Source: Blakeslea trispora (taxonomy: Eukaryota > Mucoromycota > Mucoromycetes > Mucorales > Choanephoraceae). From it: a stretch of 64,000 nt of DNA. Where the stretch lies: contig JAIWNE010000018.1 in NCBI GenBank assembly GCA_025331445.1, positions 1 to 64,000 on the forward strand, read 5' to 3'. The position numbers were made by a program, and so were the translations under genes. The notes below the pieces were generated by a model that worked only from the letters and a program-made list of their open reading frames with translations, made no database searches and was not told the DNA's origin. This document shows, in pieces, positions 37,624 through 47,022 of the stretch; position 1 is the stretch's first letter; every line of letters begins with the position of its first letter.

Positions 37624-38142
37624 CAGTTTGAAAATTTAAAAAAAAAAAATAAAGGGGACACAGTTTCTCTTTCTCTTGCCCTTTTTGGATAGAATGCTGT
37701 GCCCACTTTATTTGGATGTTTTTTTAAAACCATTTATTTCTTGGAAAAAGTCCAACACCATGAAAAACAAGAGTACATATTCTGTTATAAGTGTGGATGG
37801 TTTCAGTAACCATACTCCATCAAAAGATTGAATGTCACTTTTGAAAACCACCTCGAATTCTTCACTCTGCCCCCCACCTTCTACTCTTCCGTTTATTTAA
37901 CAGAAGACACTCACGACCATCTCTTCTTCTTCCTAGCTACTAAAATGGCTTTCCAATATCCCCTTTTTTTTTTTCTTGCTCCAGTCATTTCTAGAGATAG
38001 TATGTGTTGAGCGATTAAGCCCCTCTCTTTTTTTTTTATATAGTAAAGAAGTATGAATAGCATAATGTCAAAGTGTGACAGTCATGCAAAATTGAGAATT
38101 TCAAAAAAAAAAAAAAAATCGTGTTTTTTTTTGCTAAATACA
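37624..38142. other. Divergent promoter region
   Basis: About 520 bp between the TPT-transporter and WDR89-like start codons, with long A and T tracts immediately upstream of each. No gene is evident. Confidence 0.45.
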
Positions 38143-39319
38143 ATGTCAAGCAATATTCAAGTCGAAACTTGCACAGATCTCTTGCCTCCCTTTCAACTCA
38201 TCAAAGGCATCGAACTTGGTTATGATGATGCTTATGTGTTTGATGTCACAGCCAACTCGAGTTATGCCATCACTTCAGCTTCAGACAATTTTGTTCGACT
38301 CTATGACTTGAATACACTTCAACTGTCATTGACTATCCCGGCTCATAGCAACCGAATCTCGAAAATGAAACTCAAGTCAGATCAGTATCTATTTACTTCA
38401 AGTGAGGACGGTACTTTGAAACGTTGGGATTTGCGATCACCTCAGAATCCAGTTCAACAATTTCAGTGTAAGTTTAAAAGAAAAAAGAAAATTTTTTCGC
38501 TATCACTTATAGCACCATATTAGACAATAAGCCGATCACTGCATTTGATTTGAATTGCAATGATTCAATGGCTATTTTGGGTACTGAGTTCTCCTTTGAG
38601 ACACAATCTGCTGATTTAGCTTTCTTTGATACCCGTAACGCCAACCTGTTACATGCCTTTACCGACTCACACGGAGATGATGTGACCGAGGTAAGAACCA
38701 GTCTCTAGCTATCTTGAAAGCCTTTTTTTATTGACTAAATCTAGATCCAATGCCATCCTTCTTTACCTGCACAATTCTTGTCCTGCTCAACAGATGGCAT
38801 GATCAATAGCTATGATGTGACTGAATTTGACGAAGAAGAAGCCATGACTTCGGCCATCAATTCAGGTTCTTCCGTCAACAAGATAGGCTATTTTGGCCCC
38901 AATGCTGAATATCTCTTTTGTCTGACCCACATTGAGACCTTTTCGTTACACACTTTAGAGGGTGATTTGATTTGTGATTATGGCGATATTCGTTCGATCC
39001 AACTTGCCGAGATAGACTATGCTATTGACTGTAGCTATGATCCTTCAACACAGCGATTCTATCTTGTCACTGGTAATAACAGGTAACAGATCAGAAAAAA
39101 AAAGAAATGAGTGATGCCTTGTGTTGACAATCCTCTGTTACTAGTGGCACGATTGATTTCTTCCATGTCAATATTGGCCAATTACAACATTGCCAACAGT
39201 TAAAAGCACCTAATGGGCATTCCGATATTGTTCGGTCCTTGTATTGGAATCATCCAACACAGAGTATATTGACAGGTGGAGAAGATGGTAGATTATGTGC
39301 ATGGCAAGGACAATCATAA
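38143..39319 (+). CDS. WD40 protein, WDR89-like
   Basis: Four exons in phase (38143-38467, 38524-38690, 38745-39082, 39145-39319) encode 334 aa. WD repeats are visible as YVFDVTANSSYAITSASDNF, VRLYDLNTLQ, SEDGTLKRWDLRSP, FLSCSTDGMINSYDV and the final YWNHPTQSILTGGEDGRLCA, WQGQS, consistent with a seven-bladed propeller. The length and order of segments (AFFDTRNANLLHAFTDSHGD, DVTEIQCHP) resemble WDR89. The family's molecular role is poorly defined. The ATG used is the one after the A and T tracts; an upstream in-frame ATG at 38053 would add a poly-Lys stretch and is unlikely. Confidence 0.85.
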
Positions 39320-39518: not shown

Positions 39519-42500
39519 ATGTCTGATTTCTTTGGATCATTCAGAAAAAAGAAGAATACGCCAATATCACCGAGTCCGACTTCGCCTCGGGCCTCGTTCG
39601 ACTCTTCCTCCAGAAGAAGTCATGGTCCAAACGACGTCTTGACTGATGAACCTATGCCCAATAGTGATCAGCAAATTGAAGATCTCTTTGATCAGATGCT
39701 GAGTCGAAGAGGTCTAGACGAAGAAAAGAAAAAACCACTCAAGGCTTCTTTAGACTACAAGACGAAATGGGCCATGGTCGTGCAGGACCGTAAGGCGGAA
39801 CAAGTGGTTTCAGGCCGAAAGACAACCAGTGACCAAGTAGAGGACGAGTCAGCTCAGCCCTTGATTTCTGTCTTGTCTGACCTGGCAGGCGAAATGTGGA
39901 GTGCGACACGCGAATCCACAGCTCGCCATATGGACCGTCATTCCTATCGTCACAGTCAATTGGCTCCCATGCGACAGCCCGTACCTTCTTCAACGACGGT
40001 CAGTAATTCAGTTGCCTATGATGGTGTTTTACCGACCGATAAAAATTCACCTGAATTCTATATTCGAAAATTTATGGAAGCAGATTTAAGAGCAGTAACT
40101 CCCGCTTTAGCCGATAATTTGGCTGTCAGTTTAAGAACTCGACCATTAGAGTAAAGCAATGAAGAAGAAAAAAAGAGAGAAAGTGCAGAAAAATTCATCT
40201 TTTTTATTGTTATTTAGTTGGGTGATTCGGTTTACTGACTTGAAAGGTTTACGAGTTGTATCTCAAGGTCTTGGTGTATTAAACAAAAAGCCAGATTCTG
40301 AAAGGTAAAGAAATGCACACACACACACACCATTTGGATAATAGAGAATAACCAATCAAACTATAGAAAGGGACAAGCACTTGAATTAGAATATGGCTTG
40401 ATCAAATGTATCAAAGTCTTGATTAATGCAAGAGTAAGTTACACTCACTTTAGAATAGTTGTCAGTGGATTGAAATATCATTTCTTTTTTTTTTATTCTT
40501 AGTGGGGTGCCCGTGAAGCTATTTTGAATCCAGACTATATTCATTCAGTCGTCTTTTCGATTGGATGTCCCCAATGGCAAGCCAGAAAGACAATTTGTGA
40601 TATTCTGTTGTTTTTGTGTCACTGTGATGTACCATTGGGTCATAGCATTGTGATGCAAGGCTTTGAACTGTATAGACAACACCGTCAAGAATATGGTATA
40701 TTTGATGCTTGGATCAAGGATTTCGATCATGCCTTGGATGGCACCCATCGTGTGGGTCGATCCAACTCAATTGATGATTACCAAAAGCTCAATGTATTTG
40801 TTCCTCCTGACAGCCATCTAGTTGAATTCTGTGTAAGTAGATGATATATGTCTTTCAATTTATGACTAACTTCATTTTTATAGTTATCCAACTTGGGCTT
40901 AATCAATGCACTTGTCTATATTCCTACAGAAGTGAATGACCGAGTCTATCTACGTAGTCAACTCAAGATGTCAGGATTAGAGCGTATCTTTAGTAAGCTA
41001 GAAAAGCTGGATGATGCCTCTCTGTACGATCAAATGGCAAAGTACCGTCGAAGAGCAGAAAGTGATCTGGATGAAGCCTTTGGTGATGAGATATCCATGT
41101 ATACTGAAGTCTCACAGCCCAATGAACTGTTTGAATTGGTCCTGGATAGTCTCAACGATGCACCTCATGCCCATGACTTTTTATTACAGACCTTGAGAAG
41201 TATGTTGTTGATCAAAGGAAGTCCTGATAGAAAGTAAGTTTGAAGAGAAAAAGGGGGAGAGGAGAAAGTATCACTTACACAAGACATTGCTTAGAGCACA
41301 TTATCATCAAGCTATCAGTGAAATTGTATCGAATATTGTGATGGATCGAAGAGAAGGTCTGAGTGCAGAGGAACTTGGTACGTCTGCCTTTGGTATCTCG
41401 GTCAATAGCATGGTAGGAAGGTTCAATGAACTGGATCGTCTTCAAGAATTGGCTAGAACAGCCGAAGAAGACCGAGAGATGGCTCTTCGTTTAGGCGCTG
41501 AAAACAAGGCATTAAAGGACGAGATCCAGTCATTGAAGATAGCCTCTTATCAGGGAGAACAACGCAACTACAAGCTAGAAAACATTGCCTTACGTGCTTT
41601 ACAGAGTCAATCAAGCAAGACGATTGCTATGCTTCAAGAGCGCCTGAAAGAAAAGACAGATGATTTGGACGAGGTCTCGAGTATAGCCAGTAGCCCACCT
41701 TCTATTGTTGTGGGTGAACAGTGGAAACTATCAGGTAGAAGACCTGATAATACTCTGCCTCTTCCTTCCCTCTCAAAGAGCGCTGAACTAGCAAAAGCAA
41801 ACAAATCTCCTATACCCATTTCTCAAGAAGAACAAGATAAGTCTAACAATGACGGTATACCTCCACCACCACCTCCTCCTCCACCTCCTCCTCCACCACG
41901 TAAGTGATTGATCGAACGGAACAAATGTATTGATTCAATCAAGTTAATCAGAAGAGCTCATTTTTCTTTAAATATATAGCAATGACAGGCTCAGGCAGTG
42001 GTGCTCCTCCTCCTCCCCCACCACCTCCTCCACCACGTAAGTAAAATGGTACGACAAAAAAGTAATGACAGATCTTTGTTTTGACATTTTGATAAAAATA
42101 GCACCTGGAGGTCCCGGTGTTCCTCCCCCACCTCCCCCACCACCTCCACCTCCACCACGTAAGTGATTGAACAAATGTTTCTTTCTTTCTTTTTTACAAA
42201 TCCATGTTAATTCTCTATCACAGCACCTGGAGGCCCTGGCGCTCCACCGCCACCACCACCACCACCACCACGTAAGTCATAAATGAGCAAACAGTATATG
42301 TGATTATAATACTTATGTCAAGCCATAGCACCCGGAGGCCCTGGTGCTCCTCCACCTCCACCTCCACCTCCTCCACGTAAGTCATGCTTTTTATCGTTTT
42401 CAAACTTTGGATGACTGATGACCCTTATAGCTCCTGGTGGCCCTGGTGGTCCTCCTCCACCCCCTCCTCCACGTAAGTCCTACCTATTGTTTGAAATCTA

Positions 42501-44591
42501 GACATTGAATCACTGATGATCTTTATAGCTCCTGGCGGTCCCGGTGCTCCACCTCCACCTCCTCGTAAGACGGACACACTAAATGATTTTGTCGAGCAAG
42601 TTTAACTGAATTTTTTTTCTATAGCTCCTGGTGGTCCTATGCTTCCTCCTGTCCCTACTGGACCTGCACGCAAACAACTTCGTCATTATCCTCAAGTGAA
42701 GCTCAAGAACTTACAATGGCAAAAGTTGGATGCACGTGGTGTAGAAAAGACTGTATGGAAATTGGAAGATGTAGATGAAAACGAGATCGAAGATGAACTA
42801 GATAAGAATGGTGTATTTAATCAGATTGAAGAACTTTTCCCTGCCAAGGTCAACAATTTCTTTGAAAAGCGATTGAAAGCAAAGGTAGAAGAAAAGAAGG
42901 ATGCAGTCAAATTCCTTTCAAAGGAAAAGACGAGAAATATCAGTAAGTACTTTACTTTATGCCTGTCCTTTTTTTCTCTGACATGTCTCTGTCATTTTCA
43001 AGATTTGGCTGTATTGCCCAAGGTCAAGCAATACAATAGTTATGTTGAAGTGCGATTAGAAATCATGAAGGTCAATGATGAAGTCTGTACGGAAACTTTC
43101 TTGGGCAATTTGTTGGCATATATTCCTAGTAAGGATGATGATTTGAAGTTGATGGAGAAATATTTGAATGGCGATCCAGAAGCATGTGAAGAATTGGATT
43201 TCCCTGAACAGTTTACAATTGAGGTAACAAACATCACCCAGATCGTTTTTTGACTCTTTCTCTAAAACACATGCATAGATGTACAGAATGTACCGATATG
43301 AACCTCGAATTCAATTCATGCTTTTTAGAGTTCAATTCTGGGAAAAGTTTGAGCAGCTACAGAAAGTAAAGTGAATCATAACAAAATATACGGAAATGCT
43401 TATAAATTATTAGAATATGACGATTGTCCTCCAAGTGTCTGATGTGTTGAAAAACTCGAAACATTTGAAGAGTCTTTTATGTGTAAGTGAGCCATTCCAG
43501 ATCAATAGAATGGATAAGTAACATCACTCCCTGTAGCTCATTTTAGTACTTGGTAATTTCATGAATGCATCTAGTCTTCAAGGTGGTGCTTTCGGTATGC
43601 GTATTTCAAGTATCAATAAGGTATTGAAAGAAAGTAGACAAAGAGAAGCAGTTGGTAACATTTTATTGTAGTTGGTGGATACAAAAGCATCCAACATCTC
43701 ATCACTGACTCTGCTCCATGTCGTTACCGGTGTTGTACGTCGTCAATTTCCTCAACTGATGGGCTTCTTGGAAGATTTGAAAGAAATTGAACAAGCAGCT
43801 CGTGTGACAGCTAGTATGAACGACATGATTCAGCAGTACACTGAGATGAGAAAGGGCCTCAAGGATTTAGATAACGAACTAGAGACTCAATGGAAAGAGG
43901 CAGAGATTAATGAGGATGAGGACAAGTTCCGTAGTGTGATGACAACCTACAAAGAAGAAGCTTCAGTACGCTTCCAAGATCTTCAAGCGCTTTATATCAA
44001 CATGGATGCAGCCTGGAAAGATGTGATGGTGTATTATGGTGAGAATCCAAAGGTGATGCGTCCTGATGATTTCTTTGGCACTTTCTCTCGATTTGTTGTC
44101 ACTTGGAAGGTAAATAAACAATATTAACAAAGAGGAAAAAACTCATCACATTTGTTTTTGTAGGCTGCAAGTCTTGCTGAAGAAAAGATGGCCATGAAAC
44201 AAGAGCGCGAAGAGAAGAGAAAGCGTGAAGAAGAAGAAAGAAAGGAGCGTGCAAGATTAAAGAAAGAAAAGGCAGAGGCTGCCCTCAAAGCCAAAAGAGG
44301 TTCAGTTCAAGGCATCAATACAGGTAAGAAAAAAAAAAAGAGAAAAAATGGGGATTAAAAACAAAAGCTCACGTTTTGTTTTTATCAGATGCTGATGGCA
44401 AGGGCGAAAATGATCGTTGTATGATGGATAACTTGTTGGAGCAACTAAGAACAGGAGAAGTTGAAGTGCGCACAACCAGTAGACGTAGTCGAAGAAATAA
44501 GGAACGCAAAGAAGAGGATAAAGCAGAAGGTGTCTTATCTGCTGCAGACTTATTAAAGAGTCTTGCAGCTGAAGAAGAGACAAGCAACTAG
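39519..44591 (+). CDS. Diaphanous-type formin (Bni1/SepA class)
   Basis: Twenty exons join in phase to give 1312 aa. Exons 1-6 (39519-40150, 40218-40304, 40367-40433, 40503-40832, 40884-41233, 41295-41899) hold the GTPase-binding/FH3 region (SPEFYIRKFMEADLRAVTPA, GLVALL-like repeats, LINALVYIPTEVNDRVYLRS) and a coiled coil (LRLGAENKALKDEIQSLKIA). FH1 begins at the end of exon 6 and runs through six proline mini-exons. FH2 follows (from 42625: LKNLQWQKLDARGV, LVLGNFMNASSLQGGAFGMR, TLLHVVTGVVRRQFP; remaining exons 43003-43223, 43279-43365, 43414-43482, 43537-43620, 43672-44109, 44164-44323, 44389-44591). The C-terminus has a basic coiled stretch and a DAD-like segment (MDNLLEQLRTGE, RRSRRNKERK). 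Formins nucleate actin cables at hyphal tips and septa under Rho control. Phases check throughout; only exact FH1 inclusion in mRNA is uncertain. Confidence 0.93.
41980..42564 (+). repeat. Array of six proline mini-exons in the formin FH1 domain
   Basis: The mini-exons are 41980-42036 (57 nt), 42102-42158 (57), 42224-42271 (48), 42329-42376 (48), 42431-42472 (42) and 42529-42564 (36). Introns of 54-80 nt separate them. Every exon is phase 1-1 and a multiple of three. Five of the six open with the motif (C)CA/CT-CCT-GGN-GGN-CCN-GGN (PGGPG[AVG]) followed by 4-10 prolines and end CCxC/GTAAG; the first instead opens MTGSGSGA. Exon 42625 starts with the same PGGP motif and leads into FH2. This is a tandem exon duplication series. 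Confidence 0.9.
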
Positions 44592-45476: not shown

Positions 45477-47022
45477 ATGCATAACAACAAAAAGTCGAGA
45501 AAGATAGAGACAGGTCCAAAATGGAAACGAGAGCTGGCAAAGGAGCACAAGTTTGACAATATCGATCTTGAAGCTCTTCAAAACAATAACTGTATAACCA
45601 TGCTACGTTATCTGTTCTTATTATGCTCTATCATCATCTCCTTTTTAGCTTATATAGCTGATCTATGGACAGCCGTCACTTTATTGGTCTACGATGTAAG
45701 TAGCTTACAAAAAAAGAAAATAGAAAGGACATCTAATTAAGTTTTTTTCCAGAAATGGTCACTTTCAAAGCAGCCCATTATCCCTTTTTACATCAGTAAA
45801 TGGATTTATGTAGGCTGTATCATCTTATCTTTCATGTTGTTGGCATGGGAAATTCGCAACGCAGTCAGGGTGATGGATACAAGAGATGTCTCACTTGCTG
45901 TCACCAATCCGCTTGCCTATCGAACTTATTCAGTTAAAGGATACCACTATTTCTGTTTATTAAGAAAAATCAAGTCGTCTACTAAATGGAGCGATGTAAT
46001 TATTTTTTATGTGTTTTACACTCTAAAAGGTAAAGAGAGATTAATGGATATACTTGATGTATTAAAACGAATTGATTTAGGCTGGAAGAAAGTGATTGTT
46101 GCTCAGTCTCCTCGTCAAATCATTGCAGGCATGACAGCCTATGCTATTTTATACTCGGCATGGAGTGATCAAAATGGTAAGAACTTGACTCAATCATTGA
46201 CTTGGAAAAAAGAGGGGAGTGTCTTTTAATGCTGTTTTTTTTACGAATAGGTCATTTTCACTTTGTAACAGATTGGGATGTCTATGGCTCAGACTGGCAA
46301 CAACGTGTTACTCTGATTCTCATGTGCTTTACCTGCCTTCTTTGGCTTTTCTCTGCCCTGTCCATAGCACTTGCAGTCTTTCTCTACTTTTTTGTTCTAT
46401 GTCAAATCCAGGGTAATCTAAAAGAATATTGCTGTCATAAGATCGATAAAAGGTATAAAAGGGAGTTTTCTTTCGCTATAACAATACTTACAATGACCAA
46501 TTTAGAATCAATGAAATCCTTGCAAAATATGAAAAATCGAGTCGTCTGAAATTGGAAAGAAATCAGACCTATGTTCAACACATTGCTCTGAAAAGACAAG
46601 ATACAGACATGAAGCCTGACAAAATGGAAAAATCAACAACGCCAATCATCAAACACAATGAATCTTATCGACATGAGGATGATGAGACACAGATATGGGA
46701 ATATTACAATTACCATTCTATGTCAAATGTTCCTCAACCACCCAATGAGATGGATTATAGTCAGTCTTATTTTAATCATCACAATCATCATACTCCCATA
46801 CAGCCTGAAGCTAGTTATGATTGGCGGGCCCAATCAAATCAAATCAGCAACCATAAGCCAGACGATTACGCATATCATTATTCAGATAATTACAACTATT
46901 CAGCTTATGAGCCTGCTCCAAATTCGACTCCTGCTGCCTATGACTATCATAACAACCTTACACCTAGTCATAGTCAAGCTAACTATTTAAATCATCAGCC
47001 TTATTCATATTATAAAAACTAG
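45477..47022 (+). CDS. KCH-type potassium transporter (Kch1/Prm6-like)
   Basis: Four exons in phase (45477-45695, 45753-46176, 46251-46452, 46506-47022) encode 453 aa. The N-terminus (GPKWKRELAKEHKFDNIDLE) and helices (YLFLLCSIIISFLAYIADLW, WIYVGCIILSFMLLAWEIRN, LMCFTCLLWLFSALSIALAV) match the fungal KCH family, which mediates low-affinity K+ influx coupled to calcium signalling and mating or stress in yeast. The central soluble part (VMDTRDVSLAVTNPLAYRTY, RQIIAGMTAYAILYSAWSD) is also characteristic. The C-terminal ~150 residues are disordered and rich in Tyr, His, Asn and Pro (YSQSYFNHHNHHTPIQPE, NYNYSAYEPAPN). The plasma-membrane location is family knowledge. Confidence 0.85.

What the first reader, a model, noticed from the sequence alone, without database searches (positions are those of the whole stretch)
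41871..42660. Formin FH1 domain assembled from six symmetric, shrinking mini-exons
Six consecutive exons of 57, 57, 48, 48, 42 and 36 nt, all phase 1-1 and all multiples of three, each encode one proline block, in most cases preceded by PGGPG. Any subset can be skipped without a frameshift, so alternative splicing could tune FH1 length and profilin-binding capacity, and hence actin elongation rate. The lengths fall steadily towards FH2, as if the array grew by serial tandem duplication. Established: FH1 proline number and distance from FH2 affect formin-driven elongation. Inference: this gene uses splicing to adjust it.
Basis: partly seen in the sequence, partly recalled or inferred. Interest (0 to 1): 0.78.

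Follow-up and report, generated by a model that had tools for sequence, protein, structure and literature searches.

The report
Formin proline domain built exon-by-exon
In a Rhizopus-like mould, the flexible proline-rich arm of an actin-building protein is encoded by six tiny look-alike exons, one proline block each; this is an unusual gene layout, but nothing here shows that the cell shuffles the blocks, and constitutive splicing is more likely.

Summary
Inside a complete 20-exon, 1312-aa Bni1/diaphanous-type formin gene (39519-44591) lie six consecutive exons of 57, 57, 48, 48, 42 and 36 nt. All are phase 1-1, each carries one polyproline tract, and five of six open with PGGPG. All 64 skipping combinations stay in frame. 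Pattern searches of the 37-Mb genome found this junction nowhere else. Gene models of Pilobolus and Rhizopus delemar relatives carry apparent read-through of the same proline|GTAAG junction.

Symmetry is common in this gene (7 of 12 other internal exons). All 19 introns are 48-80 nt. An EST survey recorded no skipped exon in Rhizopus oryzae, on thin data. The decline towards FH2 also occurs in single-exon paralogs and in Bni1, but not in several relatives. Intron similarity gives no support for recent serial duplication.

Best reading: an old, constitutively spliced, collagen-like one-tract-per-exon array whose unit number changes between species. No RNA evidence was available.

The parts
39519..44591 (+). 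whole formin gene, 20 coding exons, 1312 aa: GBD (175-302), FH3 (328-509), FH1 (676-800), FH2 (808-1191), tail
   Evidence: exon joins give one open frame; Pfam FH2 E 2.2e-72, Drf_GBD 7.1e-36, Drf_FH3 2.6e-23
41295..41899 (+). exon 6 (605 nt): linker region ending in the first polyproline tract (14 Pro); ends C|GTAAGT
41980..42036 (+). mini-exon 7, 57 nt, phase 1-1, PMTGSGSGA + 12 Pro
42102..42158 (+). mini-exon 8, 57 nt, phase 1-1, PGGPGV + 14 Pro
42224..42271 (+). mini-exon 9, 48 nt, phase 1-1, PGGPGA + 11 Pro
42329..42376 (+). mini-exon 10, 48 nt, phase 1-1, PGGPGA + 11 Pro
42431..42472 (+). mini-exon 11, 42 nt, phase 1-1, PGGPGG + 9 Pro
42529..42564 (+). mini-exon 12, 36 nt, phase 1-1, PGGPGA + 7 Pro
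42625..42942 (+). exon 13 (318 nt, phase 1-1): PGGPMLPPVPTGP linker and start of FH2
41900..42624 (+). array with its seven introns (80, 65, 65, 57, 54, 56, 60 nt); each has an in-frame stop if retained

Best explanation
This is a Bni1/diaphanous-type formin whose FH1 domain is encoded by one polyproline tract per exon. The repeated unit is an intron plus [PGGPG-(Pro)n], with the intron always after the first base of the proline codon that closes a tract. Shown: the array, its frame neutrality, the failure of pattern searches to find it elsewhere in the genome, and apparent read-through of the same junction in two related gene models. Inferred: the seven introns are removed constitutively, giving one FH1 with seven profilin-actin docking tracts that feed the FH2 dimer at the filament barbed end, with long distal and short proximal tracts as in Bni1. 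Inferred: the array descends from one ancestral intron-bearing unit copied long ago, and exchange between units changes tract number over evolution. The symmetric exons make such gains and losses harmless to the reading frame. Array modularity would then be an evolutionary dial on FH1 length rather than a splicing dial.
For: Gene model and domains. Profilin gene present. Identical phase and codon position at 7 of 7 introns. Pilobolus P0001 carries RKYPVELFTSYIYLHILCSIA where a P is expected, as a retained 60-nt intron would give, and R. delemar P0006 ends PPPPPPRKH; four or more P followed by R and K, V or M occurs in 2 of 179 proteins held. Tract number is 6-9 in the six proteins compared, ours included. 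Constitutive splicing: introns 48-80 nt, 6 of 7 donors GTAAGT, retention of any of the 7 gives a stop. Rhizopus oryzae has 61-nt constitutive introns and 0 recorded skipped exons (PMC3925392, passages). The gradient matches Bni1 tracts 11, 13, 7, 4 (PMC9705415, passages) and single-exon paralogs C217, C112, C168.
Against: No RNA evidence at all for this gene. Array introns are not more similar to each other than other intron pairs in the gene (21 array pairs, mean z 0.22; 84 mixed, 0.11; 66 non-array, 0.42), so common descent of the units rests on position and phase. Relatives are gene models, not DNA, so the number of introns in their FH1 is unknown. Other related models show few tracts: Spinellus P0005 1, Dichotomocladium P0038 2, Absidia P0039 2, Cunninghamella P0041 3, Fennellomyces P0036 4. 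P0003, P0034 and P0035 show no decline. The R. oryzae survey covered only 9% of genes by two or more reads. All six other formins found in the genome have FH1 tracts without such splitting.
Confidence: 0.75

Rival explanations
1. Regulated exon skipping: the cell omits subsets of mini-exons to make formins with 1-7 tracts and so tunes profilin-actin delivery and elongation rate.
For: 64 of 64 combinations are in frame. A Bni1 construct with two of four tracts replaced elongates more slowly (PMC11773026, passages), and single tracts differ by position (PMC9705415, passages). Metazoan and plant formins are alternatively spliced (PMC555941, passage).
Against: Symmetric exons are common in this gene (7 of 12 outside the array). 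Short introns and donors no weaker than the rest. Skipped exons 3% of fungal events on average and 0 in R. oryzae (PMC3925392). That paper proposes intron definition in fungi, where failure gives retention, and here every retention gives a stop.
Confidence: 0.08
2. Independent intron gain: a one-exon repeat FH1, like paralog C217, was split by separate insertions at the same site in each repeat. (A rival on origin only.)
For: Array intron pairs are not above background in similarity. Paralog C217 has a like tract/linker design in one open frame, and the FH1 of C112, C168, C157 and C269 also lies in one open frame.
Against: Seven introns at the same codon position and phase; same junction in Pilobolus and R. 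delemar traces; old duplicated introns would also look unrelated by now, as linker third positions nearly do.
Confidence: 0.15
3. Introns as spacers: they are kept because they break a long (CCN)n tract into short pieces and so reduce slippage and deletion of FH1. (A rival on upkeep only.)
For: Each array exon holds one tract of 7-14 prolines, with 54-80 nt of other sequence between. Compatible with the best explanation.
Against: Paralogs carry unbroken tracts of about 20 (C218), 23 (C112) and over 30 (C269) prolines in one open frame, so long tracts are tolerated in this genome.
Confidence: 0.12
4. Artefact or decayed gene: the introns are not spliced or the gene is dead.
For: None beyond lack of RNA.
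Against: The 20 exons join into one 1312-aa frame with GBD, FH3 and FH2 and GT-AG sites at all 19 introns. The R. stolonifer relative is 81% identical over 662 aa.
Confidence: 0.02

Closest known systems
Saccharomyces cerevisiae Bni1 and Aspergillus SepA formins
   Same: GBD-FH3-FH1-FH2 order (Bni1/SepA layout partly recall; SepA-like hits carry the same Pfam domains); Bni1 tracts 11, 13, 7, 4 shorten towards FH2 (PMC9705415, passages)
   Different: Here each tract after the first has its own exon. Exon structure of Bni1 and SepA was not examined here (Bni1 FH1 as unsplit is recall).
Own-genome paralogs C217 and C112
   Same: Several FH1 tracts with the shortest next to FH2; C217 also has repeated short linkers
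   Different: Their FH1 lies in one open frame
Own-genome paralog C218
   Same: Same Mucorales formin group by FH2 (19-row group, 99/99), but in a separate clade within it; their branching order is unresolved
   Different: One uninterrupted tract of about 20 prolines, with an intron a few codons after it
Fibrillar collagen genes (54-bp exon units)
   Same: Repetitive rod sequence encoded by many small exons of set length, proposed to come from amplification of an exon unit (PMC5395295, passages and the title of its reference Yamada 1980)
   Different: Different protein and kingdom; here unit length varies with proline number; no duplicated intron sequence detectable above background
Dictyostelium formins
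   Same: Conventional GBD/FH3-FH1-FH2 formins
   Different: Introns lie generally upstream of FH1 and no alternative splicing was seen in coding regions (PMC555941, passages)

Membership tests
Diaphanous-related / Bni1-type formin | FH2 domain | tested here: met
   PF02181, 244.7 bits, cut-off 34.8; PDB sequence matches include DAAM1, mDia1, Cdc12, Bni1
Diaphanous-related / Bni1-type formin | FH1 with polyproline tracts just before FH2 | tested here: met
   seven tracts, 88 Pro in 125 residues
Diaphanous-related / Bni1-type formin | N-terminal GBD and FH3 | tested here: met
   PF06371 123.9 bits, PF06367 83.3 bits, both over cut-off
Diaphanous-related / Bni1-type formin | C-terminal DAD | tested here: inconclusive
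   no Pfam DAD hit at E<=1; tail has MMDNLL followed by basic residues, DAD-like by recall only
Regulated cassette-exon array | exons frame-neutral | tested here: met
   64 of 64 combinations in frame
Regulated cassette-exon array | isoforms lacking exons exist and vary with condition | not testable with these tools
   no transcript data
Tandem exon duplication (collagen-like) | units share position, phase and core coding sequence | tested here: met
   7 of 7 introns same codon position; PGGPG in 5 of 6 mini-exons
Tandem exon duplication (collagen-like) | duplicated intron sequence recognisable | tested here: not met
   introns 10/11 (11 of 10000 shuffles) and 6/12 (23 of 10000) are the best array pairs, but non-array or mixed pairs reach 18, 27 and 41 of 10000

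The most novel reading that the evidence does not exclude
A Mucorales formin uses an ancient, conserved set of one-tract cassette exons as a combinatorial rheostat: growth-stage-specific skipping yields FH1 domains of 1-7 profilin docking tracts and thus different actin elongation rates from a single gene.
Probability: 0.07. Interest if true: 0.82.

Novelty: new variant of a known kind. Interest (0 to 1): 0.4.

Why it matters
FH1 tract number and spacing help set formin speed. A gene in which each tract is a separate frame-neutral exon gives a natural system in which tract number can change by whole units between species, or, if the bolder reading holds, between transcripts. It also warns that several public Mucorales formin models look wrong or cut off at FH1.

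Tried and rejected
Intron homology as proof of serial duplication: array pairs are not above background. An earlier global test had suggested introns 6/8, 6/12 and 10/11 (0 of 200 shuffles each); in the local test 6/8 fell away (1266 of 10000 shuffles).

The shrinking lengths as a signature of duplication order: rejected, because single-exon paralogs show the same trend, P0003, P0034 and P0035 do not, and linker third positions agree in only 33 of 75 comparisons.

DNA of related species: genome contigs (436 pattern matches) and viral contigs (49) gave no relative; by their descriptions they hold bacteria, archaea and viruses. No metagenome scan was allowed. Relatives could only be read as predicted proteins. 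P0002 (Apophysomyces) has RCAINSSLSKLA where P is expected, which looks like part of a read-through junction, but the 33 extra nt are shorter than any intron in our gene, so it was not counted.

Other phases of proline-run|donor in the genome: 2 and 1 isolated hits, against 3 and 3 for the reversed controls. A one-mismatch search gave 24 hits, 7 of them the array at 0 mismatches and 17 elsewhere, against 9 control hits.

Papers: the ten searches listed no paper describing an exon-per-tract FH1 as far as titles and abstract starts show. Most lists were capped (for example 15 of 333, 15 of 435) and the library lacks most subscription journals. No paper was read whole; only the passages cited were seen.
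Full report
What is there. The finding lies in a complete formin gene, 39519-44591 on the + strand. Twenty exons with GT-AG introns join into one 1312-aa frame. The protein has a GTPase-binding domain, FH3 and FH2 over the Pfam cut-offs, with the proline-rich FH1 between FH3 and FH2, and matches solved FH2 structures including DAAM1, mDia1, Cdc12 and Bni1. No DAD model was hit. The window belongs to a 37.2-Mb genome of 285 contigs. Among the relatives compared, the partial Rhizopus stolonifer protein P0074 is nearest, 81% identical over 662 aa, so the source is probably a Rhizopus-like member of the Mucorales.

The array. Exons 7-12 are 57, 57, 48, 48, 42 and 36 nt, each phase 1-1. Each donor follows the first base of a proline codon and each acceptor supplies the other two (C|GTAAG...YAG|C), so any two of them join into a proline codon. 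All 64 inclusion patterns give an uninterrupted protein with 1-7 tracts. With the tract at the end of exon 6, the tracts hold 14, 12, 14, 11, 11, 9 and 7 prolines. Five of the six mini-exons open with PGGPG; the first has MTGSGSG.

Is it more than chance? In the whole genome, a run of four proline codons followed by C|GTAAG was found 7 times, all here, with 0 for the reversed controls. Adding an acceptor 30-60 nt downstream gives 6 hits, all here, controls 0 (the 80-nt intron 6 is outside that range). The acceptor-PGGPG pattern gives 5 hits, all here, controls 0. Donors after proline runs in the other two phases give 2 and 1 scattered hits, against 3 and 3 for the controls. The tool warns that it skips simple repeats, so absence elsewhere is not proven.

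Relatives inside the genome. FH2 matches fall on seven loci (the first look scores only 20 candidates). In C217, C112, C168, C157 and C269 the FH1 lies in one open frame. C217 has a like design (tracts with GMPGA/GMPGG linkers). C218 has one tract of about 20 prolines and an intron a few codons later. A tree of FH2 segments (32 rows; C157 and the FH2-less P0006 not included) puts our gene with Pilobolus P0001, Sporodiniella P0004, R. delemar P0035 and R. microsporus P0037 (98/97). C218 falls in another clade with Pilobolus P0044, R. microsporus P0045 and R. arrhizus P0048 (100/98). Both sit in one Mucorales group of 19 rows (99/99) whose inner order, including P0002, P0003, P0005 and P0034, is open; I therefore call those relatives, not proven orthologs.

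Relatives outside. No fungal DNA collection was searchable (searches found nothing), so relatives were read as predicted proteins. Two gene models seem to betray the same junction. Pilobolus P0001 carries RKYPVELFTSYIYLHILCSIA in place of one proline between two tracts, as a retained 60-nt intron starting C|GTAAG and ending AG|C would. R. delemar P0006 stops at PPPPPPRKH, as if reading through such a donor. Four or more P followed by R and K, V or M is in 2 of the 179 proteins held. Apophysomyces P0002 has a shorter insert of the same flavour that I did not count. Tract number in the six proteins I compared, ours included, is 6-9. Other models of the same group show fewer: Spinellus P0005 1, Dichotomocladium P0038 2, Absidia P0039 2, Cunninghamella P0041 3, Fennellomyces P0036 4; Gongronella P0043 shows 8. 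Whether these are real or mis-predicted is unknown. R. stolonifer P0074 is cut before FH1, so it says nothing.

Does symmetry mean skipping? No. Outside the array 7 of 12 internal exons are also symmetric, including four consecutive exons of the FH2 region (15-18, phase 0-0), where skipping would be expected to break the domain. All 19 introns are 48-80 nt; skipping one mini-exon would need pairing across 152-202 nt. Array donors are GTAAGT in 6 of 7 against 5 of 12 elsewhere, a small sample that shows only that they are not weaker. In an EST study, skipped exons averaged 3% of events over 23 informative fungi, and Rhizopus oryzae, with 61-nt constitutive introns, had 26 retained introns, 4 and 11 alternative ends and 0 skipped exons; it had 13,313 reads and 9% of genes with two or more reads, so this is thin (PMC3925392, passages). 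A wider survey also reports low skipping in fungi (PMC6142364, passages). Retention of any of the seven array introns meets an in-frame stop, as for 11 of the 12 other introns. Constitutive splicing is therefore the likelier state, but this is inference from base rates, not from RNA.

How did it arise? Identical phase and codon position at seven introns argue for one intron-bearing unit that was copied. Sequence does not help: introns 10/11 and 6/12 are the best array pairs (11 and 23 of 10000 shuffles), but other pairs reach 18, 27 and 41, and array pairs are not more alike on average. Linker third positions agree in 33 of 75 comparisons. Copying was old, or the introns came separately. Linkers are more alike within than between species (0.57 against 0.50, 1 of 1000 permutations; 39 of 42 linkers from seven proteins, three longer ones dropped; two presumed read-through inserts replaced by P first), which hints at lineage-specific turnover of units.

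The shrinking. Tract length against order gives rho -0.93 here, -0.94 in P0002, -0.62 in P0001 and -0.25 in P0004, but 0.44 in P0003 and 0.08 in P0034; paralogs C217, C112 and C168 give -0.88, -0.80 and -1.0 on 6, 4 and 3 tracts. Left out of that test: truncated P0006, R. delemar P0035 of our own clade (7, 4, 5, 5, 8, no decline), the few-tract models named above, P0043, and C157, C218 and C269, which I took as single-tract. Bni1 has 11, 13, 7 and 4, and single tracts near FH2 gave faster elongation in its constructs (PMC9705415, passages). So the gradient recurs with or without introns but is not general, and it is not a trace of duplication order.

Mechanism, committed. Profilin-actin docks on seven tracts of a flexible FH1 and is delivered to the FH2-capped barbed end; a profilin gene is present. 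Long distal and short proximal tracts fit the Bni1 picture. The exon-per-tract layout lets units be gained or lost without frameshift. I put 0.75 on constitutive splicing with evolutionary, not regulatory, modularity, and 0.07-0.08 on a splicing rheostat.

Standing. A formin with unusual gene architecture: a new variant of a known kind. My ten paper searches listed no description of an exon-per-tract FH1, judged by titles and abstract starts of capped lists in an open-licence library.

Noticed in passing
P0001, P0006, P0074, P0037 (related proteins): Several public Mucorales formin models look wrong or truncated at FH1: P0001 includes an apparent retained intron, P0006 stops inside the array, P0074 (longest contig 2519 bases) ends before FH1, and P0037 carries Pfam domains of another protein together with FH2.
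   Followed up: partly
L012 (C112), L014 (C269), L009 (C218): Other formins of the same genome carry unbroken tracts of 23, over 30 and about 20 prolines in one open frame.
   Followed up: partly
window 43279-44109: Exons 15-18 in the FH2 region are all phase 0-0 and multiples of three (87, 69, 84, 438 nt), as symmetric as the FH1 mini-exons.
   Followed up: yes
window 45741-46229: Part of a fungal potassium channel gene (Pfam KCH, E 4.8e-41) just downstream of the formin.
   Followed up: no
window 38047-38520: Open frame with a WD40 repeat over the Pfam cut-off, just upstream of the formin; the next open frame (38745-39083) had no significant hit.
   Followed up: no
window 40316-40330: Short CA dinucleotide run inside intron 2 of the formin gene.
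   Followed up: no
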